Origin: Colwellia sp.
GTDB lineage: Bacteria; Pseudomonadota; Gammaproteobacteria; Enterobacterales; Alteromonadaceae
Reading direction: 5' to 3'
DNA: 64,000 nt
Assembly (NCBI GenBank): GCA_013215465.1
Contig: JABSOW010000002.1
Location: 394,026 to 458,025, forward strand
Part shown: one piece after another, positions 6,027-39,139 of the stretch
Layout of the letters: each line of letters starts with the position of its first letter
Numbering within the stretch: the first letter of the stretch is position 1
Program-made: the position numbers and the translations under genes
The notes under the pieces: model-generated
The model's database searches: none
Told to the model about the DNA's origin: nothing
Seen by the model: the letters and a program-made list of their open reading frames with translations, nothing else

Positions 6027-6959
6027 ATGGATAACTTAAATCAATCATTAGAGAAAAGAGCTCAGGCGAATCAAAATAAAGCGTCGTGGCCATTAATAGT
6101 TTTTATTATTTTAGTGATTATTGCTATCGGTATTGCATGGCAATTTACTGGCGATAAGTCTGAGCCAGTTGTTATTGTTGAGCCCGTACTCATAGTAGAA
6201 GAAATACCTGAAAAAGTGGTAGAGCTACCGGAACTAATTATTGAAATACCTGAAGTTGTTGTTGAAGAAATCATTGAGCCAATAGAGAATTTGTTACCTT
6301 TATTAGATGACAGTGATGATTGGCTAAAGATAAAATTACCCGAAATTACCTGGCGTAAAGAGTTACTAAAACTAATTATTGATGAAGACATGATTAGACG
6401 TTTTGTCGTTTTTACTGATAATTTTGCGCAAGGAATTATTGCTTATGAGCATAGCCCCTTTATTCTACCTAATACTAAATTCACACCTGATATTGATAGT
6501 GTTAGTTTTCAGAATATCGTTTATCAACCAGAACAAAATACTTCACAAAGTTCTTTGCCCGTAAAGCAGAATGTTTGGCAATGGAATGAAAATTCAAGTA
6601 GACGCTTTAGCTTATATGTTGATTTATTAAGATCAATGGACAGTGAAAACTTGGTGCAATGGTATAGTGAAATAAAGCCTTTAATTGATGAGGCTTATAG
6701 CGAACTAGGTTATGAAGATGACTTTACTAACACCTTGCAAGATGCCATAACCCGTGTTTTAGATATGGAGTTACCCAAATCATCGATGGCATTAATACAA
6801 CCGAGTGTGATGTATAAATTTGCTGATCCTGAACTTGAAGCGTTACCAGATACTGATAAGTTATTACTGCGTTTAGGAAAGGGTAACCTGTTAGTGATGA
6901 AATCTGTATTGCTAGAGCTTCATGAAAAGTTAGCTCAGCAAGAAAATGGTGTTCATTAA
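6027..6959 (+). CDS. DUF3014-family membrane-anchored protein
   Basis: The 310-residue protein has a short cytoplasmic N-terminus, one membrane helix (about residues 21-40, WPLIVFIILVIIAIGIAW), then a periplasmic part. A valine/glutamate/proline-rich spacer (about 47-92: repeated EIPE, VVEE and VEEI units) leads to the conserved domain, which includes the WRKELLKLIIDEDMIRRFVVFTDN segment typical of DUF3014. The family has no known function. It lies 46 bases after the LysR gene on the same strand; whether they share a transcript is unclear. Confidence 0.75.
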   Translation: MDNLNQSLEKRAQANQNKASWPLIVFIILVIIAIGIAWQFTGDKSEPVVIVEPVLIVEEIPEKVVELPELIIEIPEVVVEEIIEPIENLLPLLDDSDDWLKIKLPEITWRKELLKLIIDEDMIRRFVVFTDNFAQGIIAYEHSPFILPNTKFTPDIDSVSFQNIVYQPEQNTSQSSLPVKQNVWQWNENSSRRFSLYVDLLRSMDSENLVQWYSEIKPLIDEAYSELGYEDDFTNTLQDAITRVLDMELPKSSMALIQPSVMYKFADPELEALPDTDKLLLRLGKGNLLVMKSVLLELHEKLAQQENGVH

Positions 6960-7134
6960 TGGCGCTTTATCTAGGTAGTAACAAAGGAAATACTACTCTT
7001 TTGTGTAAAAAAACCACAAGCAGCGTGGCGTTATTCGAAAATAGCTAACTAGTGCTTGCATCCTAACGTTTGATTAGCGATAATCCGCCCGCTAGCCAAT
7101 ATAAATATTTTTTCTCTTTTGGTTAGACTTATTA

Positions 7135-27268: not shown

Positions 27269-27310
27269 GCTATGTGCTCTATATAATAGAGTAATGATTG
27301 GATAGTGTTG

Positions 27311-29083
27311 ATGAACTTTAATCCGAAAAAATCGATGGATCGAACGGTCCATTTTTATTCAGCTCAGCAGTTCGATAAAGCCTTAAAAGAAATACAGCCC
27401 CTCTTAAAAGCATTTCCTAATGATGGCAGTGTAAATCATCTTTATGCATGCATTCTAAAGTCTGATAATAAACATTTGACGGCAATTGAGTATTTTAATA
27501 AATCACTCTTTGCAAATTCAAAAAATATAAATGCTTGGAATGATTTAGGTTGTTTATATAAGGATATGAAAAATTATGATGAAGCTATCAATTGCTTTGA
27601 AAAAGCGTTAGAGATTAAGAAAAATCACCCTCAAGCAATAATGAACTTGGGAAATGTGTACCATAAACAGCAGCGTTATGATTTAGCAATAGAGTACTTA
27701 AATAAAGGGATTGAAATTCAGCCAAATAACTCAATGGCGCAATTTTCTTTAGGCAATGTGTATAAAAGTACAAATCAAATTGAATTGGCTGTATTGAGTT
27801 ATAAAAAGTCAATAGCCGTTAGCGCTAAAAATTACAAAGCACATTATAACTTAGCACTTACGTTAAAAGGTTCTGGGGATTTAACCTCAGCATTGAAACA
27901 TTGCCAACAAGCTATTCAATTAAATCCGAACTATTTTGTTGCAGTAATGCTTATGGGGGAATTGCATGAGTATATTGGTAATATAGAGACTGCTAAATCT
28001 TGTTATCGTAAATCTTTAGCGTTATCACCTTCGTTTACTGAAGCGTATTGGAGTTTAGCAAATCTTGGTAGTAATAACTTAACAGCTTCAGATCTAAAGA
28101 CAATGAAAGCTTTGGAAACTAGCAATTTAACTGATAAATCAAAAATATATTTATTCTTTTCTTTAGCTAAATTTTTAGAGGAACAAAATGATTTTTCTAA
28201 TGCTTTTCACTATCTAAAAGAAGGGAATGAGCTAAAAAGAAAATATATTTATTATCAAAGTGAACAAACGTTATCTTTATTTAATGAATTACGATGTTTG
28301 TTTAATAATGAATTGTTTTCAAAATCTTTTTCTGTAGAAAATGATGATATATCGCCAATTTTTATTATTGGAATGCCCCGTTCAGGTACTAGCTTAGTAG
28401 AACAGATTTTAGCGAGTCATAGTAGTATAACTGGAGGTGGAGAATTAGAAACATCTTTACAATTGCTATTTGATGAGTTGCCTAAATTGACTAAGGTTAG
28501 TTGGCAAAAAAGTATATCCATGTTAGAACCAAGTATTATTAGATATTTAAAAAATATCTATATAGAAAAACATGCCAGCTTAATAAATACAACACAATAT
28601 TTTACGGATAAATTACCATTCAACTTTGCTCTTGTTGGCTTTTTAATGTTGATATTTCCAAAAGCAAAATTTATTCATATATATAAACATCCCTTAGATT
28701 CTTGTTTAAGTTGCTACAAACAACTTTTCACCGGCGGTCAAGAGTATAGTTATCAACTTGATGAGCTAGCCTTATATTATAAAGAATATGTAAAAATGAT
28801 AAAGCATTGGAATTCCATCAATTCTGATAACATTTTAAATATTAGTTATGAAAACTTGGTTGAATTTCCTGAAAAAAATATATCATCAATTTTAAATTTC
28901 TTAAATCTTCCTTGGCAAAAAGAGTGTTTACAATTCCAAAACAGCAGACGAATTGTTAAAACTGCCAGTTCAGGACAAGTTAGACAAGGACTATATAAGA
29001 ACTCGATTACTCGTTGGAAAAATTACGAAAAAGATTTATTACCATTAATTGATATATTATCTGAAGATTCAATTTGTTTTTAG
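27311..29083 (+). CDS. TPR protein with C-terminal sulfotransferase domain
   Basis: The 590-residue protein carries about eight TPR units (residues 15-270; NAWNDLGCLYKDMKNYDEAINCFEKALEI is a textbook repeat, given here in part) followed by a Sulfotransfer_3 domain. The 5'-phosphosulfate loop is G354-M-P-R-S-G-T360 in FIIGMPRSGTSLVEQIL, and the DKLPFNFALVGF and HIYKHPLDSCLSCYKQ blocks complete the PAPS site. ATG at 27311 is preferred over GTG at 27305. It would transfer sulfate from PAPS to an acceptor selected by the TPR part. It lies 42 bases after the oxygenase gene. Confidence 0.88.
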   Translation: MNFNPKKSMDRTVHFYSAQQFDKALKEIQPLLKAFPNDGSVNHLYACILKSDNKHLTAIEYFNKSLFANSKNINAWNDLGCLYKDMKNYDEAINCFEKALEIKKNHPQAIMNLGNVYHKQQRYDLAIEYLNKGIEIQPNNSMAQFSLGNVYKSTNQIELAVLSYKKSIAVSAKNYKAHYNLALTLKGSGDLTSALKHCQQAIQLNPNYFVAVMLMGELHEYIGNIETAKSCYRKSLALSPSFTEAYWSLANLGSNNLTASDLKTMKALETSNLTDKSKIYLFFSLAKFLEEQNDFSNAFHYLKEGNELKRKYIYYQSEQTLSLFNELRCLFNNELFSKSFSVENDDISPIFIIGMPRSGTSLVEQILASHSSITGGGELETSLQLLFDELPKLTKVSWQKSISMLEPSIIRYLKNIYIEKHASLINTTQYFTDKLPFNFALVGFLMLIFPKAKFIHIYKHPLDSCLSCYKQLFTGGQEYSYQLDELALYYKEYVKMIKHWNSINSDNILNISYENLVEFPEKNISSILNFLNLPWQKECLQFQNSRRIVKTASSGQVRQGLYKNSITRWKNYEKDLLPLIDILSEDSICF

Positions 29084-29645
29084 TTCATCTGTATACCCAT
29101 CTTACCTCAAGATGTAGGATTCAGCTGGAATTAGAAACGCCTTTAGGCAAGATATTGATTGAATAGAATGGTTATTCCCTTGTTGAAATTAGTATAGAAG
29201 TTGGTTTAAATCCCCGTCTTTAGACTGTGGCTGTTGAGTGTAATTTGATGTCAATTGGCTAAACCTGGTGTGAAGCTAAAATAGAAAATCACCAATTAAT
29301 AGCAAATAAATTTGACTTACTACGAAAGAATTAGTAAAACATAAGGTAACAAAATATTTAAGTCATTATTTGGCTATTTTGTACAAGTAATAATCAAAAA
29401 AGACCATGGTAAGTTAATTAAACATTTTTATACTGACTTGTTTCAATTTTTAACATGATATTTTTTATTTACTACTAAAAGCGAACAAAATAACTTTATT
29501 ACTCTCAACTTGACAGCTTGTTTGTCATTTGGGATTATTAATTAGTTGTATATATAAAAGTTACACATAAAAAAACGACAGATTTTTATATTTACGGTAA
29601 CAAAAATTTTTGTTATCAAAATTTAAATAGCAATGGTTGGGAACT
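29084..29645. other. Intergenic region with a repeat-like segment
   Basis: No gene is seen. The first 200 bases are less AT-rich and include the short hairpin core GTCTTTAGAC (29217-29226 region) beside CCCC/GTGG, which resembles a decayed IS200/IS605 end, and GAATA..TATTC (29161-29177). They may be a MITE-like repeat. The last 60 bases contain a near-perfect 22-bp palindrome before the TonB operon. Confidence 0.4.
29596..29617. promoter_or_regulatory. Near-perfect palindrome upstream of the TonB operon
   Basis: Ten of eleven base pairs match around the centre AAAAATTTTT, flanked by GGTAAC and GTTATC. It ends 28 bases before the DUF3450 ATG and could be an operator or a leader hairpin. It does not match the Fur consensus. 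Confidence 0.45.
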
Positions 29646-30425
29646 ATGTCCAAAGTAAGTAAGAAAAGCCTCATCGCCACGGCGATGGTTGGCGCATTAG
29701 CACTAGCAGGTAGCAATATTGCTGCTGCAAATGCATTAACAGATCTTCAAAAAGCTGAAGCGAAAATTTTTAAACAGTCAGCTAAATCACAATCTAAAAT
29801 CGACACTATATACGAGCAAACGCAAGATCTTCTTGCTGAATATCGTAATACTGTCGATGAAGGTGACGTCCTTAGTGGTTATAACGACCATGTGCAACGT
29901 ATGGTTGATGATCAAAAATTAAACATTGCCTCATTGCAAAAGCAAATTGATGGTATCGATAAAATCAAACAAGGTGTTGTACCGTTAATGTACAAAATGA
30001 TAGACACCTTAGAAAAGTTTATAGAATTAGATGTGCCAATGAACATCGAACGTCGTAAAGAGCGCGTAGCTAATTTACGTGACGTAATGACTGACTCAAA
30101 CGTAACAACGTCTGAGCAGTTTCGTTTAGTACTTGAAGCATATGAAATTGAAGCGGGTTACGGTACAATTTTTGACGCTTACCAAGCTGAAATTGATTTT
30201 GGTGGCACTACATTAACAGCCGATTTCGTTCACATGGGACGTATCGCCTTTGTTGCTCAGTCTTTAGACGGCAAACACTCTTGGTTATGGAATAACCAAA
30301 ACCGTGCATGGGAAGAGTTAGGTGATGAGTACTTAAAACCTATTAAAGATGCAATCGCTATGGCGCGTAAGCAGCTTCCAATGGATCTAACTAAATTACC
30401 AGTATTTGCAGCAGGAGCAAAATAA
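29646..30425 (+). CDS. DUF3450 protein of the TonB energising operon
   Basis: This 259-residue exported protein has a signal peptide ending SNIAAANA and then a long helical, coiled-coil-prone region (about 30-130), then a C-terminal part with FVHMGRIAFVAQSLDG and WLWNNQNRAWEEL, as in DUF3450. The family almost always precedes the long-armed ExbB of TonB2-type systems and is thought to support it in the periplasm. ATG at 29646 gives a normal signal peptide. Its stop overlaps the next ATG (TAATG). Confidence 0.85.
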   Translation: MSKVSKKSLIATAMVGALALAGSNIAAANALTDLQKAEAKIFKQSAKSQSKIDTIYEQTQDLLAEYRNTVDEGDVLSGYNDHVQRMVDDQKLNIASLQKQIDGIDKIKQGVVPLMYKMIDTLEKFIELDVPMNIERRKERVANLRDVMTDSNVTTSEQFRLVLEAYEIEAGYGTIFDAYQAEIDFGGTTLTADFVHMGRIAFVAQSLDGKHSWLWNNQNRAWEELGDEYLKPIKDAIAMARKQLPMDLTKLPVFAAGAK

Positions 30426-31774
30426 TGAGAAAATTTATTAATTTTGTAACGATAGCCGCAATAATGACTGCTGGCTTAGTAGCAACCACACAAGCAAATC
30501 AGTTAGATGATTTACTTAAGCAAGTTAAAGCTGATCGTGTATCAGAAGCTAAACTTGATAAAAAACGTGAAGCTGAATTTAAAAGTGCTCGTAGCGACAA
30601 GCAAGCATTGTTAAACAAAGCGAAAAAAGAATTAGTGAACCAAGAAGCACGTAACAAACGTTTAACTAGCGAATATGCAGCTAATGAAATTAAATTAGCG
30701 CAAAAAGAAGTTGAATTAGATAATGCTACTGGCACTTTAGGCGAAATGTTCGGCGTAAGTCGTGCTGCTGCAGCGGGTGCTTACGGTCAAATCGCTACTT
30801 CAATTGTAAGTGCTGAATTTCCAGGTCGTGGCGAAGCGTTAAACCGTATCGCTAACGCCAAGGCAATTCCTAGCTTAGAAGATCTTGAAGAGTTATGGTT
30901 TGCCTTACAAACAGAAATGACTCAATCAGGTAAAATCTCTAAATTTACTGTTGAAGTGACTAAGCTTGATGGCTCTAAGTCAACTGAAACCATTACTCGT
31001 ATCGGTACTTTTAACTTAGTATCTGATAATGGTTACTTAACTTATAACGATGAAGTGGGTCAAGTTCAGCCTTTACCTAAGCAACCAGCGGGTTATATTG
31101 CTGGAACTGCTGCAGACTTCTTTAATAGCAATTCTGGCTATAGTGCTGTTTATGTCGATCCTTCACGTGGTGGTATCTTATCACTTGAAACACGTAAGAA
31201 AACGTTAGAAGAATTCTTCCATGAAGGTGCAGAAGTTGGTTATGCCATCACAGCATTATTCATTATTGGTTGTTTAATTGCTCTTGAACGTATGATTGTT
31301 TTAGGTAGCATGAGCTCTAAAATTAAAGCACAAGAGAAAAACCTTGAAGTGCCAAATGAAAACAACCCGTTAGGACGTTTACTTAAAATTTATCATAATA
31401 ACAAGAACATTGATGCCGAAACATTAGAGCTTAAACTTGATGAAGGTATCTTACGTGAAACACCTCAAGTAGACCGTGGCGTTAACTTGATCAAAATGTT
31501 CGCTGCTATCGCTCCACTGATGGGCTTATTAGGTACGGTTATCGGTATGATCATGACTTTCCAAACGATTACCTTATTTGGTACTGGTGATCCGAAAATC
31601 ATGGCGGGTGACATATCTCTTGCTCTTGTTACTACTGCTTTAGGTTTGATTTGTGCATTGCCATTGATTCTTATCCACTCAGTTGTTGCAGGTAAAGCTA
31701 AATCTATTTTACAAAAGCTTGATGAACAAAGCGCAGGCTTAATTGCTTCTCTTGCAGAGAAGGAGTCTAAATAA
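30425..31774 (+). CDS. ExbB/TolQ-like protein with periplasmic coiled-coil arm (TtpC type)
   Basis: The 449-residue protein has a signal peptide (1-24), a periplasmic coiled coil (about 27-100), a further periplasmic domain to ~265, then the MotA/TolQ/ExbB channel with three helices (about 277-297, 360-382, 398-420) and the signature MFAAIAPLMGLLGTVIGMI. Such long forms are TtpC, required by the TonB2 system in vibrios. Translationally coupled at both ends by one-base overlaps. Confidence 0.9.
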   Translation: MRKFINFVTIAAIMTAGLVATTQANQLDDLLKQVKADRVSEAKLDKKREAEFKSARSDKQALLNKAKKELVNQEARNKRLTSEYAANEIKLAQKEVELDNATGTLGEMFGVSRAAAAGAYGQIATSIVSAEFPGRGEALNRIANAKAIPSLEDLEELWFALQTEMTQSGKISKFTVEVTKLDGSKSTETITRIGTFNLVSDNGYLTYNDEVGQVQPLPKQPAGYIAGTAADFFNSNSGYSAVYVDPSRGGILSLETRKKTLEEFFHEGAEVGYAITALFIIGCLIALERMIVLGSMSSKIKAQEKNLEVPNENNPLGRLLKIYHNNKNIDAETLELKLDEGILRETPQVDRGVNLIKMFAAIAPLMGLLGTVIGMIMTFQTITLFGTGDPKIMAGDISLALVTTALGLICALPLILIHSVVAGKAKSILQKLDEQSAGLIASLAEKESK

Positions 31775-32298
31775 TGTTATTCCTGATAGAGCTTTGGGAA
31801 TCTGTCAGGGGTTTTCTTGCGACTGGCGGTAACGTACTTTATGCTGTCGCCTTCGCACTCTTATTGATGTGGGTATTGATGATAGAACGTTTTTGGTTCT
31901 TAACATCGGTTTATCCAAAAATGAGAGATGATATCATCTCTCGTTGGGATGCACGCTCAGACACTACGTCTTGGTACGCACATCGCATTAGAGAAACTTG
32001 GATCTCCGAAGCAGCAGAGTTACTTGAGCAACATATGATTACCATTAAAACCTTAGTGGCAATGTGTCCTCTTATCGGTTTACTGGGAACAGTAACCGGC
32101 ATGATTGGCGTGTTTGAAACAATGGCAGAACAAGGTACAGGTAATCCGCGTTTAATGGCCGCTGGTATATCACAAGCTACTATTCCGACGATGGCGGGTA
32201 TGGTAGCAGCGTTATCCGGTGTGTTTTTTAGTACTAAACTAGACGCAAAACTTAAACTAGCAAAGGCTAAACTGGTTGACAGTTTACCTCATCACTAG
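31774..32298 (+). CDS. exbB: ExbB proton-channel protein (TonB2 type)
   Basis: The 174-residue short ExbB has three helices and the channel motif MCPLIGLLGTVTGMIGVF (about 90-107) and ATIPTMAGMVAALSG. It forms the proton channel with ExbD to energise TonB. Its ATG overlaps the stop of the long ExbB by one base. Confidence 0.92.
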   Translation: MLFLIELWESVRGFLATGGNVLYAVAFALLLMWVLMIERFWFLTSVYPKMRDDIISRWDARSDTTSWYAHRIRETWISEAAELLEQHMITIKTLVAMCPLIGLLGTVTGMIGVFETMAEQGTGNPRLMAAGISQATIPTMAGMVAALSGVFFSTKLDAKLKLAKAKLVDSLPHH

Positions 32299-32310
32299 AG
32301 AGATATTTTC

Positions 32311-32715
32311 ATGACACGTAGAAAGATTCGTGAGGACGAAGAAGCGGTAATTGATATGACACCGATGCTTGACATCGTATTTATCATGCTGATTTTCTTC
32401 ATCGTAACCACTTCTTTTGTTAAAGAAGCTGGTATTGAAGTAAATAAACCAAAAGCGGCCAATCAATCTAAACAAAAAAATGCCAATATCTTTATTGCAA
32501 TTAAAGATAATGGTGAAATTTGGTTAGATAAAGGTCGTGTTGACATCGAACGTGTTGGTGCAAGAATTGAAAAATTACTTGCTGAGCAACCGACCGATGT
32601 TGTAATTATCCAAGCAGACAAAGACGCTAAACATGGTGTTGTTGTAAAAGTAATGGATGCAATCAAAGAAGCAGGAAGTGGTCTTAGAATATCCATTGCT
32701 GCAGCGAAGGGGTAG
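32311..32715 (+). CDS. exbD: ExbD biopolymer transport protein
   Basis: The 134-residue protein has one N-terminal membrane helix (about 20-40) that starts with the essential Asp in VIDMTPMLDIVFIMLIFF, then a periplasmic domain. It pairs with ExbB. It starts 12 bases after exbB and ends 3 bases before tonB. Confidence 0.94.
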   Translation: MTRRKIREDEEAVIDMTPMLDIVFIMLIFFIVTTSFVKEAGIEVNKPKAANQSKQKNANIFIAIKDNGEIWLDKGRVDIERVGARIEKLLAEQPTDVVIIQADKDAKHGVVVKVMDAIKEAGSGLRISIAAAKG

Positions 32716-32718
32716 AAT

Positions 32719-33333
32719 ATGGGACGCTTTTTAGTATCATTACTACTAGGCGCTGCGGTTACCTTTGGTCTATTTGCTTTTATGGCTTTCCTTGTATCCA
32801 CTGGTGATAGAAGAAAGGATGAGGCACAAGACAATATAATCGTAGAGGTGAATACTACGCCGCCGAAGTCTTCAACAGAGACTCGCCGACGGGTACCACC
32901 GCCGCCGCCGCCGCCGCCTAAAGCACCGCCAAAGCAACAAGCTCCTGAGCCTGAAGCAAGTAACGACAGTGCAGGGTTGCAATTTAATATGCCAGGTGTT
33001 CAGATATCTGGTGCATCAACGGGATTATCTGCACCTGGTGCAGGCTTTGGCCGAGATGGCGATGCCACACCAATTGTTCGAATAGAACCTAAATATCCTA
33101 TTCAAGCCGCACGTGATGGTAAAGAAGGTTGGGTTAAACTTTCATTTACTATCAATGAGATTGGTGGTGTTGAAGATGTTAAAGTTCTTGAAGCAAAACC
33201 TAAACGTGTTTTTGATAAAGAAGCTAAACGCGCACTTAGGAAGTGGAAATACAAGCCAAAAGTTGTTGATGGTAAACCAATGAAGCAACCAGGTTTAACT
33301 GTTCAATTAGACTTTAAAATGGACGGAGGTTAA
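32719..33333 (+). CDS. tonB: TonB energy transducer
   Basis: The 204-residue protein has an N-terminal membrane helix (about 5-28), a short proline-rich spacer (eight consecutive Pro after RRRV, then PKAPPK) and the C-terminal TonB domain beginning PKYPIQAARDGKEGWVKLSF and ending in LDFKMDGG. The spacer is much shorter than in E. coli TonB, a TonB2 trait that may be compensated by the TtpC arm and the downstream TPR protein. The operon presumably serves the three receptors in this window and others. Confidence 0.95.
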   Translation: MGRFLVSLLLGAAVTFGLFAFMAFLVSTGDRRKDEAQDNIIVEVNTTPPKSSTETRRRVPPPPPPPPKAPPKQQAPEPEASNDSAGLQFNMPGVQISGASTGLSAPGAGFGRDGDATPIVRIEPKYPIQAARDGKEGWVKLSFTINEIGGVEDVKVLEAKPKRVFDKEAKRALRKWKYKPKVVDGKPMKQPGLTVQLDFKMDGG

Positions 33334-33338
33334 TAATT

Positions 33339-34631
33339 ATGTTTAGCAATACTATTTTTACAACAGTTACGTTGAAAAAATTATCTACTTCTTTAGTTGT
33401 TATCGCTTCACTTTTAGTTGTTCAAGCTCCATTTGCAGATAATGCGATGGCTGCAGCAGCTAAAAAAGAGCAAAAAAAGAAACGTCCTACGCAACTCGTT
33501 GGTCAATCAGTTGGTAAAAAAGTAGCTAAAGCTTTTGATGCTTATACTGCTGATGATATCGACGGTGCGTTAGTAATTTTAAAAGACATTAATGTCAAGA
33601 AAGATTACGACAAAGCTTATGTTGCTCGTTTTATTGCGGTTATGTACGCCACCAAAGGTGATCATGAAAAAGAAGCTATTTCTTACTTGAAAAAAGCTGT
33701 TGCGCCAGACATCTTAAATGAAGTCGACCACGGTGAAGCCATAAAGTTATTGGGTGATTTGCAAATGCAAACCAAAGACTATAAAGGTGCTTTAGGTAAT
33801 TTCTATGCTTGGATGAAGTTTACCGGGAAAGATGATGGTAATACTTGGGTTAAAATAGCCCAAGCTCATTATGAGTTGCAACAATTGGATAAAATGATTG
33901 TTCCTGCTGATAAAGCCATTGCTGCTTTTGGCGATAAACCGAACTCAAACCCTTATATTTTAAAGCTTACTTCTTATTATGAACGTAAAAAATATAAAGA
34001 AGCAATTAAGGTGTTAGAAACGGTTATCTTAATTTTTCCTGAAAATAAAACATGGTGGACACAGTTACCTATGTTTTATTTGTTAGTTGAAAATTATCCT
34101 AAAGCAGTGCAAACACTTGATTTGGCTTATAAACAGGGGTTTCTTGATAAAGAGTCACAAATTAAAACGTTAGCAAACTTGTATTCTTCGACAGAGGCTC
34201 ATTTTAAGGCGGCTCGGTTATTAGAGAAACATATTGCTTCTGGTTTAGTTAAACGTGATGACAAGAATATTTCAACGTTAGCTAATGCATGGCATGCAGC
34301 ACAACATGTTGATATAGCTGCCAAGTATTATGGTGAGCTAGCTAAAATGACCAATGAAGCTAAGCATTACCGTAAGCAAGGTATGTTGTTAAAGCAAGAT
34401 GAGCAATTTTCAAAAGCAATTCCAGCACTACAAAAAGCGTTGGAGCTTGGTGTTAAAAATAAAGGACGCATTTACATGAGTATTGCAGAATCTTATTTTT
34501 ATCTTGAAAAATATAAAAAAGCTTATATAGCGATAAATAATGCAATGAAAGATCCTAAGTCGCGTAAAGCTGCTAAAGGTTGGAAAGGTTTTATTGTTAA
34601 CACAGCCAAACGTAAGAAAGTTTCAATTTAG
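33339..34631 (+). CDS. TPR protein of the TonB2 operon
   Basis: The 430-residue protein has a signal peptide-like N-terminus ending FADNAMAAA and TPR-type helical repeats across the remainder (for example IPALQKALELGVKNKGRIYM). It corresponds to the last gene of TonB2 clusters and is probably periplasmic. The ATG follows tonB by 5 bases. A terminator follows. Confidence 0.86.
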   Translation: MFSNTIFTTVTLKKLSTSLVVIASLLVVQAPFADNAMAAAAKKEQKKKRPTQLVGQSVGKKVAKAFDAYTADDIDGALVILKDINVKKDYDKAYVARFIAVMYATKGDHEKEAISYLKKAVAPDILNEVDHGEAIKLLGDLQMQTKDYKGALGNFYAWMKFTGKDDGNTWVKIAQAHYELQQLDKMIVPADKAIAAFGDKPNSNPYILKLTSYYERKKYKEAIKVLETVILIFPENKTWWTQLPMFYLLVENYPKAVQTLDLAYKQGFLDKESQIKTLANLYSSTEAHFKAARLLEKHIASGLVKRDDKNISTLANAWHAAQHVDIAAKYYGELAKMTNEAKHYRKQGMLLKQDEQFSKAIPALQKALELGVKNKGRIYMSIAESYFYLEKYKKAYIAINNAMKDPKSRKAAKGWKGFIVNTAKRKKVSI

Positions 34632-34669
34632 TTGAGTATCCTACTTAGCTTTTGAATTTCTTAAATATA

Positions 34670-34696
34670 AAAACCAGTTTAAACGCTGGTTTTTTT
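34670..34696 (+). terminator. Terminator of the TonB operon
   Basis: Stem AAAACCAG / CTGGTTTT with an 8-base loop, followed by T residues. It ends the six-gene operon and separates it from the Cys-rich peptide gene. Confidence 0.85.
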
Positions 34697-34827
34697 ATGT
34701 GTAAATTTTAGTGTTTTATAGAACTTAAATGTGTAAAATTGTTATATCTTGATGATGCTATCAAAGGATAATAGATTGATCATTATTTGTGATAAAAAAC
34801 TATTTAAAGTGAAATTTTTTTTAAAAC

Positions 34828-34856
34828 TTGATGGTCTGTGTACACAGTCATATAAC
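34828..34856 (+). promoter_or_regulatory. Promoter with embedded palindrome for the Cys-rich peptide
   Basis: -35 TTGATG (34828-34833), a 17-base spacer, -10 TATAAC (34851-34856). The perfect 12-bp palindrome CTGTGTACACAG (34836-34847) lies inside the spacer, a classic repressor-operator position. No known metal-regulator consensus was recognised. Confidence 0.5.
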
Positions 34857-34901
34857 TAATACGTACAGGTATTAATAATTAAATAATAAAGGAAATGTAT
34901 T

Positions 34902-35231
34902 ATGAATTTACTTAAAAAATCTGCTTTGACGGCGATAATGGGATTATTAGTATTCTCTATTTTTGCAAGTAATGTTGCTAAAGCTGAAACTAACCCGTTT
35001 GCAACTCAAGACTTAATTACTTTTGCCCAAGAAAGTGCCAGTGAAGGTAAATGCGGCGAGAGCAAAGCCAAAGGCAAGTGTGGCGAAGGTAAATGCGGTG
35101 AAAGCAAAGCCAAAGGAAAATGTGGCGAAGGAAAATGCGGCGAGAGTAGAGCCAACGCTAAAGGTAAGTGTGGCGAAGACAAAGCCAAAGGAAAATGTGG
35201 TGAAGGTAAAAGTAAAAAGTGTGGTGGTTAA
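34902..35231 (+). CDS. Exported Cys-rich GKCGE-repeat peptide, HvfA-like RiPP precursor candidate
   Basis: The 109-residue product has a signal peptide cleaved after AKA (residue 28), a short leader to residue 47, then a repeat region with eight Cys (51, 60, 65, 74, 79, 90, 99, 107), seven of them in GKCGE-type motifs spaced by SKAK or RANAK. A 14-residue (42-bp) unit is tandemly duplicated. EGKCG motifs after a signal peptide define HvfA-type peptides whose Cys are modified by MNIO (DUF692) enzymes with a partner protein and which are linked to copper. No DUF692/HvfB or HvfC gene occurs in the window, so it is an orphan. It could alternatively be an unmodified metallothionein-like protein. 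Good Shine-Dalgarno (AAAGGA) and own promoter. Confidence 0.65.
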   Translation: MNLLKKSALTAIMGLLVFSIFASNVAKAETNPFATQDLITFAQESASEGKCGESKAKGKCGEGKCGESKAKGKCGEGKCGESRANAKGKCGEDKAKGKCGEGKSKKCGG

Positions 35232-35264: not shown

Positions 35265-35288
35265 AACGAGCTTTTAAGCTCGTTTATT
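35265..35288. terminator. Bidirectional terminator hairpin
   Basis: AACGAGCTTTTAAGCTCGTT is a perfect 8-bp stem with a 4-base loop between two converging genes, with a moderate T tract on the plus side. Confidence 0.7.
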
Positions 35289-35321: not shown

Positions 35322-35840
35322 CTAATTAGGATTACCTATATAATAATAAATAGTCCATTTTTTACCAAATAAACTATCAGAAGGAATAATATGAGTTGAT
35401 AAGGAAACTTGTTTGTTAGGTGCAGAAAAAGTGCTTTTACGCCCTTTATCAGCCACTCTAGGTGTTTCAGTCATCAACCAGGCATCACCTAAGCATTGCT
35501 GAATAGTTTGTTGTGCATTGTTATAATAACGTTCAGCGGTATCTTTATCGTCGGCTGTTATGTTACAAGCATAAGTGGTTTTTGAGCTACCCCAACTCCA
35601 AATATGACAGTTTTCGCCGATGATATTATATTTTGCTGTCCATGTATTACTGATTCTAGCTTTAATTTTTGTCATTTTTACTTGTTCAAAACCATCATCA
35701 TAAGCACTGATCAACATCGAAATTTTTTGGCATGGATTGGTGACGGTTGTTAACTTATTCTGCGCTATAGTATTTTGATTTACACAAGCATTGAGTAGTA
35801 AAGGTGAAATAACTAAAGATAATTTTTTCAAACTATTCAT
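35322..35840 (-). CDS. Putative lipoprotein of unknown function
   Basis: The 172-residue protein has a lipoprotein signal with the lipobox LLNAC (Cys19). The mature part contains a Cys pair (CHIWSWG, YACNI) that may form a disulfide, and the C-terminus IIPSDSLFGKKWTIYYYIG. The family was not recognised. It is convergent with the Cys-rich peptide gene and shares its terminator; no functional link is shown. Confidence 0.65.
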   Translation of the reverse strand: MNSLKKLSLVISPLLLNACVNQNTIAQNKLTTVTNPCQKISMLISAYDDGFEQVKMTKIKARISNTWTAKYNIIGENCHIWSWGSSKTTYACNITADDKDTAERYYNNAQQTIQQCLGDAWLMTETPRVADKGRKSTFSAPNKQVSLSTHIIPSDSLFGKKWTIYYYIGNPN

Positions 35841-37227: not shown

Positions 37228-38964
37228 TTACCAGTTAGCTCTTTTAGCCGCTTGCAATTTCTCATAACCTGCAAGTAATTTAGCGTGAGTTTCAAAGCCA
37301 GCTAAATTTAAACCCGGGCAATGTAAACCATCAAAAATCACCTTACCCTCAACAATATCTAAACATTTGTTAACCATTTTTTTACCGTACATTAGGCCAA
37401 GAGAATTTAAATAAGGTTTATATTCTTTATCTTCACTCCACTTTATTTCTAATAAGGCTTGTAAACAACGATATTTACGGGTGTTTTCTTCATTGTTTTG
37501 ATCAAGATGTAAGGCCCAGTTAACCCAATCAATTGCTTGCTCGTCTTGAGCGGCAAGGGCTAGCATAGCCTTTACTTCACCAAGGCGTAGATCAAACCAA
37601 GTGGTGTTAGCATCGGGGGCTAAACCTATAAATTCTGCGGCTGCCATCGCATCGTTATAGCCACCTTGATCAAGGCCATCAAGAATATCTAACCAATCAT
37701 CTCTAGCTAAATCTTTTAAGGTTAAAAATGCTTCACGAAATAAAGCGCCATCATTATTATTATTCCAAACAATTTCATCTACAGGATAAATGTCAGACAT
37801 GCCGGGCACTAAAATACGACAAGCATAGACATTGAGGTGATTATAATCTGAGATATATATATCGAAGTCCAACTCGTGAATTACCTTAACTAAGTTGTCA
37901 TATTCGGTGCCAGTATCGGCATCAAAATCCCAGTCAACAAAATCATAATCTGCGGTGTCTTTAAAAAAGTCATAAGAGATAAAGCCACTAGAATCGATAA
38001 AATGTAATTCAAGGTTATGAGGCGAAGCAATTTCTTCTTCATCAAAGCTTGGCGGTTGAAAAACATCAAGTTGATCAAGGCTTCTACCTTGTAGTAACTC
38101 GGTTACTGTTCGTTCTAGCGCTACTTCAAAACTAGGATGAGCACCAAAAGAAGCAAAAACACTGCCGTCTTTAGGATTGATCAAGGTTACGCTTATTACT
38201 GGGTATAAACCGCCTAATGAAGCATCACAAACTCTTAAATGGTAGCCATGGCTTTCTAGTTCACGAATATCGGCTAATATAGTAGGGAAGCGTTCTAAAA
38301 CTGACACTGGAATTTCAGGTAAACAAATACCTTCGGCAATAATTTTATTTTTTATATAGCGTTCAAAGACTTCAGATAAACTCTGTACTCGTGCTTCATT
38401 TTTTGTGTTACCCGCCGACATGCCATTACTAACAAAAACATTGGCAATAACGCTCACTGGAATGTAAACATCCTGCTGATCGCGCTCTCTCGTATAAGGT
38501 AGTGCACAAATACCACGTTCACCAACGCCAGAATTCATGTCATAAAGTTTGTCGACGGTGATCTCATGGTTAGGATCAAAATACTGCCATAAACTATCGT
38601 CCATAATGCCAGTAGGCATAGAATCGTCTTCGCTAAAAAACCACTTTTCATTTGGGTAATGAACAAACTCACTTTGACTTATTTTATCGCCTAAATAAAA
38701 GTCGGCAAAAAAATAGTTACAGCTTAAGCGTTCGAAATATTCACCTAAGGCACTAGCTAAGCAAGATTTAGCCGTTGAGCCTTTACCATTGGTAAACATT
38801 AATCCACAGCTACTGTCTTTGATGTGTACGGAAAAGCAGTTTTTAACTGGGTTCAACCAAGAAGCTTCTTCAATATCAAAACCAAATGATTTTAATTTTT
38901 CTTGCATGGTGGCAATAGTGGTTTCTAAGTCAGAATCTTTGCCTTTAATAAAGGTTTTTTCCAT
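37228..38964 (-). CDS. ycaO: YcaO (ribosomal protein S12 methylthiolation factor type)
   Basis: The ~578-residue protein aligns with E. coli YcaO along its whole length: KTFIKGKDSDLE, FGFDIEEASWLNPVKNCFSVHI, FTNGKGSTAKSCLASALGEYFERLSCNYFFADF. YcaO domains bind ATP; the E. coli protein assists RimO in beta-methylthiolation of S12 Asp88. A C-terminal TPR-like region follows. Starts at 38964 or 38976 (both ATG, neither with a good Shine-Dalgarno). Divergent from a DGC-domain gene around an FNR-type box. RiPP-making YcaO enzymes are relatives, but no RiPP partner genes occur here. Confidence 0.92.
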   Translation of the reverse strand: MEKTFIKGKDSDLETTIATMQEKLKSFGFDIEEASWLNPVKNCFSVHIKDSSCGLMFTNGKGSTAKSCLASALGEYFERLSCNYFFADFYLGDKISQSEFVHYPNEKWFFSEDDSMPTGIMDDSLWQYFDPNHEITVDKLYDMNSGVGERGICALPYTRERDQQDVYIPVSVIANVFVSNGMSAGNTKNEARVQSLSEVFERYIKNKIIAEGICLPEIPVSVLERFPTILADIRELESHGYHLRVCDASLGGLYPVISVTLINPKDGSVFASFGAHPSFEVALERTVTELLQGRSLDQLDVFQPPSFDEEEIASPHNLELHFIDSSGFISYDFFKDTADYDFVDWDFDADTGTEYDNLVKVIHELDFDIYISDYNHLNVYACRILVPGMSDIYPVDEIVWNNNNDGALFREAFLTLKDLARDDWLDILDGLDQGGYNDAMAAAEFIGLAPDANTTWFDLRLGEVKAMLALAAQDEQAIDWVNWALHLDQNNEENTRKYRCLQALLEIKWSEDKEYKPYLNSLGLMYGKKMVNKCLDIVEGKVIFDGLHCPGLNLAGFETHAKLLAGYEKLQAAKRANW

Positions 38965-39139
38965 GAGAATATCCATTGTATAGGGTGGCTACTAAATTAT
39001 GATGATGATTATAGCTGAAATAGTCATTTTTATAATGAATTAAATAACATAAAATATTATCAAATTAAATATTTTATAAACTATGAGATTTTCATGGAGT
39101 AATAAAAATAGATAAATTATTAGGTGATTGCTACAAACA

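What the first reader, a model, noticed from the sequence alone, without database searches (positions are those of the whole stretch)
34902..35231. Orphan HvfA-like Cys-repeat peptide beside a TonB operon
A signal peptide, short leader and eight Cys mostly in GKCGE motifs, with a 42-bp tandem unit, match the logic of HvfA-type RiPP precursors whose EGKCG cysteines are oxidatively modified by DUF692/MNIO enzymes for copper handling. Known HvfA genes sit beside HvfB and HvfC; none is within 29 kb on either side. Either the enzymes act in trans, or this is a new unmodified metal-binding repeat protein.
Basis: partly seen in the sequence, partly recalled or inferred. Interest (0 to 1): 0.8.

Follow-up and report, generated by a model that had tools for sequence, protein, structure and literature searches.

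The report
HvfA-like repeat peptide lacking its maturase
A small exported, cysteine-rich protein related to copper-binding modified peptides has been kept by Colwellia bacteria without the enzymes that modify its relatives, and its sequence suggests it now works unmodified.

Summary
The ORF is real (109 aa, 8 Cys, 42-bp repeat) and passes NCBIfam's HvfA-repeat cut-off. It is not a stray orphan: in Colwellia it lies behind the DUF3450-ExbB-ExbB-ExbD-TonB-TPR operon in 35 of 35 peptide-bearing genomes. In 12 genomes of other genera of its GTDB family the same slot holds hvfA, MNIO and partner.

In Colwellia the enzymes are missing from this locus. 19 of 39 genomes lack any MNIO, and all 19 keep the peptide. 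This genome has one MNIO, bufferin type, with DUF2282 precursors; it lacks two specificity residues found in 81 of 81 distinct MNIOs from EGKCG loci.

Non-adjacent precursors have lost the 'xGY' leader motif (1 of 71, against 74 of 81 MNIO-adjacent) and the Glu before the first Cys of each run (17 of 317, against 143 of 143). In Colwellia they keep Cys under purifying selection and share an ECF-like promoter with MNIO-linked hvfA genes.

Best reading: a former RiPP precursor emancipated from its maturase, probably an unmodified periplasmic thiol metal or redox buffer. The uncoupling is well supported by sequence; the function is inferred. PMC12452194 calls EGKCG precursors without MNIO rare; here they characterise a lineage.

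The parts
34902..35231 (+). EGKCG-repeat (HvfA-like) protein, 109 aa, 8 Cys
   Evidence: (NF050137 43.8 bits, cut-off 19.5).
34902..34985 (+). Sec-type signal peptide (residues 1-28, AKA|E)
   Evidence: Sequence inspection; A28-E29 and N31-P32-F33 invariant in 14 Colwellia proteins.
34986..35042 (+). Leader after the signal peptide (ETNPFATQDLITFAQESAS); lacks the xGY motif of MNIO-linked precursors
35043..35228 (+). Cys-repeat core (7 GKCGE, 1 KKCGG), 42-bp tandem unit
34810..34837 (+). ECF-sigma-like promoter TGAAAT-N17-GGTCT
   Evidence: GAAAT-N17-GGTC upstream of 30 of 33 Colwellia orphans and 22 of 27 distinct MNIO-adjacent hvfA of the family.
34889..34894 (+). Ribosome-binding-site-like AAGGAA
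   Evidence: Sequence; AAAGGAAA is the consensus just before the ATG in 35 Colwellia loci.
34669..34694 (+). Intrinsic-terminator-like stem-loop behind the TPR gene, suggesting a separate transcription unit for the peptide
35265..35284 (+). Intrinsic-terminator-like stem-loop behind the peptide gene
29637..30425 (+). DUF3450 protein, first gene of the TonB operon
   Evidence: PF11932.
30425..31774 (+). Long MotA/TolQ/ExbB-family protein
   Evidence: PF01618.
31774..32298 (+). ExbB
   Evidence: PF01618.
32311..32715 (+). ExbD
   Evidence: PF02472.
32719..33333 (+). TonB
   Evidence: PF03544.
33339..34631 (+). TPR protein, last gene of the TonB operon; conserved neighbour of the peptide
   Evidence: TPR families; 186-869 bp upstream of the peptide on the same strand in 35 of 35 peptide-bearing Colwellia genomes.

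Best explanation
The gene is a former HvfA-type RiPP precursor that has outlived its modification enzymes. In the ancestor of this GTDB family it formed TonB operon-TPR-hvfA-hvfB-hvfC; on the branch leading to Colwellia, Thalassotalea and relatives hvfB and hvfC disappeared from this locus while hvfA stayed. The protein still has the old ECF-type promoter and a Sec signal, and its Lys-Cys-Gly repeats are still selected. It has shed the leader motif and the first-position Glu that accompany MNIO processing. It most likely works unmodified in the periplasm as a flexible thiol-rich scavenger or redox buffer for soft metals, copper first. Shown by sequence: synteny, enzyme absence, motif loss, selection on Cys, promoter conservation. 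Inferred: direction of the change, no modification in the cell, metal or redox role, identity of the sigma factor.
For: (1) 35 of 39 Colwellia genomes carry the gene (33, plus G006 and G030); 20 of 39 carry an MNIO; all 19 MNIO-less genomes carry the gene, and none has an intact DUF2063 match (G023 has a broken piece). (2) Same slot: 13 loci (12 genomes) of related genera have TPR-hvfA-MNIO-DUF2063, e.g. Aliiglaciecola, Lacimicrobium, Bowmanella, Neptunicella; all 13 fall in a clade of 20 loci (support 1.0), while the clade of 104 loci (support 1.0) has 55 with the peptide alone, 44 with no peptide at this slot, 5 undecided, and none with an MNIO. (3) 'xGY' leader motif: 25 of 27 MNIO-adjacent precursors in the family and 49 of 54 outside it, against 1 of 71 non-adjacent in the family and 1 of 5 outside. 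(4) Residue 3 before the first Cys of each run: Glu 143 of 143 in MNIO-adjacent, 17 of 317 in non-adjacent, which have Lys 262 of 317; outside the family all such positions in MNIO-adjacent precursors are Glu 519 and Asp 6 of 525. (5) The RR pair and the Phe of EGKCG-locus MNIOs (91 of 91 loci, 81 of 81 distinct) are absent from all 30 Colwellia MNIOs examined, this genome's included. (6) Cys retained in pairs of MNIO-less genomes: 8 replacements against 93 synonymous changes in 269 aligned Cys columns; repeat pN/pS 0.24. (7) Shared ECF-like promoter.
Against: No wet evidence of modification state, metal binding or expression. FonB Ala variants at Arg15, Arg16 and Phe250 still made product (PMC13097082, section 14), so a bufferin-type MNIO could still act on the peptide in genomes that have one. 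The promoter pattern was relaxed after looking at all groups and is found in only 21 of 53 MNIO-adjacent genes outside the family. The xGY motif is also missing from 5 of 54 MNIO-adjacent precursors outside the family, so its absence is not proof. Four non-adjacent peptides outside the family lack xGY yet keep mostly acidic residues before Cys. G022 and G028 have lost the gene. The periplasm oxidises free thiols (recalled). The family's MNIO-adjacent set came mostly from top-scoring repeat hits and leans toward perfect EGKCG repeats; the outside set was placed mostly by MNIO position. The tree does not polarise the change.
Confidence: 0.6

Rival explanations
1. Modification in trans: this genome's single MNIO-DUF2063 pair, encoded near two DUF2282 bufferin precursors on another contig, also converts Cys of the EGKCG peptide to thiooxazoles.
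For: The genome has one MNIO and one DUF2063 match; FonBC tolerates several variant motifs in vitro (PMC13097082); PMC12452194 notes genomes with several precursors and one enzyme pair.
Against: 19 of 19 MNIO-less congeners keep the gene; the enzyme is of BufB type (369.2 bits, cut-off 310; HvfB model 230.6, cut-off 360) with His and Thr where EGKCG-locus enzymes have Arg and Phe; leader motif and first-position Glu are largely gone. A test peptide with Arg at position 1 of both repeats was not fully processed by wild-type FonB (PMC13097082).
Confidence: 0.17
2. The repeat protein is ancestral and the MNIO/partner genes were recruited to it later in other genera; orphans were never modified.
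For: The TonB-operon tree is a two-way split under midpoint rooting and does not polarise the change.
Against: Outside this GTDB family 80 of 84 peptide-bearing genomes sampled have an MNIO, and MNIO-adjacent precursors are common there (54 peptides, from regions mostly placed by MNIO position); loss on one branch is simpler.
Confidence: 0.12
3. A different enzyme has replaced the MNIO, for example the YcaO protein encoded 2 kb downstream.
For: YcaO enzymes modify Cys in other RiPPs (recalled); a YcaO gene lies at 37228-38976.
Against: It has the YcaO_C domain PF18381 (typical of the E. coli-type protein, recalled) and a homologue lies in only 7 of the 120 loci (L174, L175, L197, L198, L199, L202, L209).
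Confidence: 0.06
4. A decaying relic with no function.
For: Repeat number varies widely (6 to 19 Cys); G022 and G028 keep the TPR gene but have lost the peptide.
Against: Cys and repeats under purifying selection, also between MNIO-less genomes; promoter and ribosome site conserved; the -3 change is patterned, not random.
Confidence: 0.05

Closest known systems
HvfA / Buf_EGKCG-oxazolin / captophorin precursors (oxazolin, fontiphorin, gonophorin)
   Same: Sec signal peptide, NPF segment shared with many MNIO-linked relatives of the family (17 of 27), KCGE repeats, ECF-like promoter, and the same TonB-TPR slot as hvfABC in related genera.
   Different: No hvfB/hvfC at the locus, no xGY leader motif, Lys instead of Glu before most first Cys of runs, below the NF050188 HvfA equivalog cut-off; persists where no MNIO exists.
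Stand-alone Buf_EGKCG genes noted by Antoine et al. 2025 (PMC12452194)
   Same: EGKCG gene without MNIO beside it; 67 of 2583 genomes with the precursor lacked MNIO in their Table 3.
   Different: There described as rare, with possible explanations left open; here a lineage-wide, syntenic and selected state with diagnostic sequence changes. TonB, ExbB and Colwellia (as word starts) occur 0 times in that main text; Cognaticolwellia is named there for a Buf2 protein.
Bufferins (DUF2282, Buf1)
   Same: This genome's only MNIO system is a bufferin cluster; also exported Cys peptides tied to metal stress.
   Different: Different motif; the window gene has no DUF2282 match.
Metallothionein-like thiol proteins
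   Same: Proposed mode of action: many unmodified Cys in a flexible Lys/Gly-rich chain.
   Different: No Pfam match at all; exported, whereas bacterial metallothioneins are cytoplasmic (recalled); unproven.

Membership tests
HvfA / EGKCG captophorin precursor | EGKCG/KCGExKCG repeat domain (NF050137) | tested here: met
   43.8 bits, cut-off 19.5.
HvfA / EGKCG captophorin precursor | HvfA equivalog model NF050188 | tested here: not met
   27.5 bits, cut-off 95.
HvfA / EGKCG captophorin precursor | Sec signal peptide | tested here: met
   By inspection and conservation only; no signal-peptide program.
HvfA / EGKCG captophorin precursor | MNIO (HvfB) gene next to the precursor | tested here: not met
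   Only MNIO is on another contig. In the genus, peptide and MNIO positions share a contig only in G010, hundreds of kb apart.
HvfA / EGKCG captophorin precursor | EGKCG-type MNIO (HvfB) anywhere in the genome | tested here: not met
   The single MNIO passes the BufB model (369.2 vs 310) and fails the HvfB model (230.6 vs 360); specificity residues differ.
HvfA / EGKCG captophorin precursor | Leader features of MNIO-linked precursors (xGY motif; Glu before first Cys of each run) | tested here: not met
   No GY in the leader; residues 3 before the 8 Cys are E,K,E,K,E,K,K,S.
HvfA / EGKCG captophorin precursor | Cys converted to copper-binding 5-thiooxazole | not testable with these tools
   Needs mass spectrometry.
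Bufferin (DUF2282) | PF10048 domain | tested here: not met
   No Pfam match for the window protein.
Metallothionein | Match to a metallothionein family | tested here: not met
   No Pfam match up to E 1.
Metallothionein | Binds metal through unmodified thiols | not testable with these tools
   Needs purified protein.

The most novel reading that the evidence does not exclude
A RiPP precursor has been converted in a whole bacterial lineage into a stand-alone, unmodified functional protein: the substrate of a lost maturation pathway became the active product. It kept its stress promoter and Cys array but lost the recognition features, and a second, possibly independent, case exists in another family of the order.
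Probability: 0.5. Interest if true: 0.72.

Novelty: new variant of a known kind. Interest (0 to 1): 0.6.

Why it matters
NCBI's repeat model names such proteins 'oxazolone/thioamide-modified RiPP metallophore', yet in this lineage the modifying enzyme is often absent from the genome, so such names may be wrong here. If the unmodified repeat binds metal or buffers redox by itself, it separates what the peptide does from what the thiooxazole adds, and gives natural unmodified variants to compare with oxazolin and fontiphorin. It also offers a sequence test (xGY leader motif, Glu before the first Cys of each run) for whether an orphan precursor is still an MNIO substrate, and raises the question whether hvf systems work together with a TonB energy-transduction operon.

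Tried and rejected
Modification in trans was tested by genome co-occurrence, enzyme typing and precursor motifs and is disfavoured, not excluded. YcaO as a replacement enzyme was set aside because it lies near the gene in few loci.

Within-array codon test: anchoring on CG makes Cys and the following Gly invariant by construction, so its zero Cys replacements and low ratios are not used as evidence; (4 pairs) and 92 are the fair tests. One search used 28 of 153 pairs (identity at least 70%, at most 25 gap positions); the pairs are not independent, and alignment of repeats is uncertain.

Structure prediction gave mean pLDDT 46.1; only the signal-peptide helix (residues 3-28) reached moderate confidence. 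No fold claim is made and no fold search was run. A scan of 873,026 bases of this genome (about 19%) found GAAAT-N17-GGTC 4 times; one of the other three lies 173 bp before an ORF in L002, two have no ORF listed downstream, and only the site before the peptide has the full form TGAAAT-N17-GGTCT. No further regulon member and no sigma factor were identified. Searches for bufferin with Colwellia and oxazolin with TonB listed papers that, by title, look unrelated; the search for the repeat string found three papers and listed two, both on HvfA or FonA.

Corrections to my notebook: entry 7 gives 13 of 30 loci for the lipoprotein-like ORF, the count is 11 of 30; entry 5 says only the peptide's promoter site lies before a gene, which the L002 site contradicts.

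Rows dropped: one search left out peptides touching a locus end, with unknown residues in the first 60, or with fewer than 4 motifs or 4 Cys; 22 of its 71 non-adjacent peptides have under 1,500 bases on one side, so an MNIO just beyond could be missed there. Five of 129 loci were left out of the tree. L281 had an MNIO but no peptide. One search used 121 of 133 loci.

Full report
OBSERVATION. The window (contig C12 of an 80-contig, 4.68-Mb genome) encodes at 34902-35231 a 109-aa protein with a Sec-type N-terminus, 7 GKCGE and 1 KKCGG motifs, on a 42-bp tandem unit. It matches NCBIfam NF050137 (HvfA-family repeat, 43.8 bits, cut-off 19.5) but not the HvfA equivalog NF050188 (27.5, cut-off 95), and no Pfam family. 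Terminator-like stem-loops stand between it and the upstream TPR gene (34669-34694) and behind it (35265-35284), which suggests its own transcription unit.

THE GENOME. PF05114 (MNIO) finds one gene, on contig C13, followed by the genome's only DUF2063 match. The MNIO passes the bufferin-maturase model (369.2 bits, cut-off 310) and fails the HvfB model (230.6, cut-off 360). Two DUF2282 precursors are encoded in the same fetched stretch, L002. No other peptide of the repeat family passes the cut-off in this genome. The partner protein misses the HvfC cut-off (47.3 against 142).

THE GENUS. Of 39 genomes, 33 have the peptide by NF050137; two more (G006, missed by the family search; G030, cut by a contig end) were found behind the TPR gene, giving 35 of 39. 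Of the other four, G022 and G028 have the TPR gene without the peptide; G012 and G036 lack an intact match to the TPR gene in draft assemblies. MNIO is present in 20 of 39. All 19 MNIO-less genomes have the peptide; 16 of 20 MNIO-bearing ones do. DUF2063 follows MNIO, except for a broken fragment with two stops in G023. The peptide lies 186-869 bp behind the TPR gene on the same strand in 35 of 35 genomes; only in L012 does the gap hold an ORF of 80 aa or more. Of 33 MNIO matches in the genus I held 30 loci; all 30 MNIOs stand behind 4-Cys DUF2282-like or 13-Cys Buf2-like precursors (judged by eye; Pfam was run only on this genome's two), none behind an EGKCG peptide.

RELATED GENERA. In 13 loci (12 genomes; L140 and L276 are the same) from other genera of the GTDB family the order is DUF3450-ExbB-ExbB-ExbD-TonB-TPR-hvfA-MNIO-DUF2063 partner, including named Aliiglaciecola, Lacimicrobium, Bowmanella and Neptunicella. 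In Thalassotalea-like genera the peptide lies 1.2-1.7 kb behind TPR, with an antisense dusC-like gene (my reading of the sequence) between in the five loci examined. In Cognaticolwellia and several other genera it lies elsewhere in the genome. A tree of six concatenated TonB-operon proteins (124 of 129 loci; some genomes counted twice) puts all 13 loci with MNIO into one clade of 20 (support 1.0). The other clade of 104 (support 1.0) has 55 loci with peptide alone, 44 without a peptide at this slot, 5 undecided and none with MNIO. One further 'peptide alone' locus, L271, sits in the first clade, but its contig ends with the peptide. The tree is midpoint-rooted and does not show direction. In a sample of 246 genomes of the family, 143 have both peptide and MNIO, 37 peptide only, 34 MNIO only, 32 neither (family-search hits only). 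In the order outside the family, 84 of the sampled genomes have the peptide and 4 of these lack MNIO. Having an MNIO is therefore the common state, and loss on the Colwellia side the simplest history. Antoine et al. 2025 (PMC12452194; I read the abstract, Results parts 1-3 of 4, section 20 and the Discussion) report 67 of 2583 EGKCG genomes without MNIO and call such cases rare; TonB, ExbB and Colwellia occur 0 times in its main text as word starts.

PRECURSOR FEATURES. Among 27 distinct MNIO-adjacent and 71 distinct non-adjacent precursors in the family, a leader motif of the form L..GY occurs in 25 of 27 against 1 of 71. The exception, L089, is in genome G074, whose MNIO lies about 59 kb away. 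With the same pattern, precursors outside the family gave 49 of 54 MNIO-adjacent; the five without it (L285, L300, L313, L319, L331) are built differently, without NPF. These came from 60 regions (of 84 peptide genomes), mostly placed at a listed MNIO, so adjacency there is partly by choice: 58 regions are from genomes with an MNIO, 2 (L323, L334) from genomes without; 59 gave a peptide, 54 adjacent and 5 not (L291, L323, L328, L334, L336). Four of those five lack the motif; L291, whose genome has three MNIOs, has it. The residue three before the first Cys of each run is Glu in 143 of 143 (MNIO-adjacent, family) and in 17 of 317 non-adjacent, where Lys takes 262. Outside the family all such positions in adjacent precursors are Glu 519 and Asp 6 of 525, and in the five non-adjacent ones Glu 40, Asp 5, Lys 2. 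Work on HvfA and bufferin indicates that the signal peptide acts as a leader (PMC13419390, abstract and passages). In FonB work a peptide with Arg at position 1 of both repeats was not fully processed by the wild type, and Arg15, Arg16 and Phe250 shape selectivity, though their Ala variants remained active (PMC13097082; abstract, section 6 part 1, sections 13-14 and passages). The corresponding RR and F are present in the MNIOs of 91 of 91 EGKCG loci (81 of 81 distinct) and 0 of 30 Colwellia MNIOs; that these columns are FonB's is my inference from the motif, since I did not have the FonB sequence.

SELECTION AND REGULATION. In four gap-free Colwellia pairs the repeats have pN/pS 0.117 with no Cys replaced; one of the four pairs (L068-L069) is between two MNIO-less genomes. 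In 28 pairs of MNIO-less genomes (of 153 possible) the ratio is 0.24, with 8 of 269 aligned Cys columns replaced against 93 changed synonymously. Upstream, TGAAAT-N17-GGTCT is conserved. In the form GAAAT-N17-GGTC it precedes 30 of 33 Colwellia orphans, 23 of 28 orphans of other MNIO-less genomes, 22 of 27 distinct MNIO-adjacent hvfA of the family and 21 of 53 outside it; two shifted spacings give 0 to 2 per group. The pattern was simplified after viewing the sequences. It resembles an ECF-sigma promoter: the Neisseria operon NMB2140-2145, under sigma-E control, has -35 GTMAGBWTT and -10 CGTCTAAH (PMC2893595, passages). The gonococcal counterpart contains NGO1945, an MNIO partner protein.

MECHANISM. 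Shown: a syntenic, selected Cys-repeat gene with an export signal and a conserved promoter that persists without MNIO. Inferred: it is not modified and acts through free thiols, binding soft metals or buffering redox. The model is of low confidence (mean pLDDT 46.1), so it neither supports nor excludes a flexible metallothionein-like chain. Whether the neighbouring TonB system supplies or uses the same metal is open; the terminator-like element between them and the genera in which the gene has moved away argue against a strict operon function.

VERDICT. As a member of the HvfA family it passes the repeat model but fails the tests that concern MNIO processing, so I file it as an HvfA-derived, MNIO-uncoupled variant. 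The pre-filing recount changed several counts slightly; none required a change of odds.

Noticed in passing
37228-38976 (-): YcaO gene (PF02624 plus PF18381) 2 kb behind the peptide; a homologue lies near the peptide only in close Colwellia relatives, 7 of 120 loci.
   Followed up: partly
35322-35840 (-): Lipoprotein-like ORF without Pfam match, next to the peptide in 11 of 30 Colwellia loci (one of them a short match).
   Followed up: no
L323, L328, L334, L336: A second group of non-adjacent EGKCG peptides in another family of the order; two of the four genomes lack MNIO. They lack the GY motif but keep mostly Glu before Cys and carry a TGTAAC-type upstream element: parallel emancipation or gene transfer is unresolved.
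   Followed up: partly
G023:C16:61344-61466: DUF2063 fragment with two in-frame stops in an MNIO-less Colwellia genome: probable relic of a lost MNIO cluster.
   Followed up: no
L002:270-551 and 6685-6972: Two DUF2282 precursors near this genome's single MNIO, one of them about 6.6 kb before it beside a DoxX-like gene.
   Followed up: partly
L137-L144, L159, L270, L274-L276: hvfA-MNIO-partner placed directly behind a DUF3450-ExbB-ExbB-ExbD-TonB-TPR operon in several genera, hinting at a functional tie between captophorins and a TonB system.
   Followed up: partly
27305-29083 (+): TPR protein with a C-terminal sulfotransferase domain upstream of the TonB operon.
   Followed up: no
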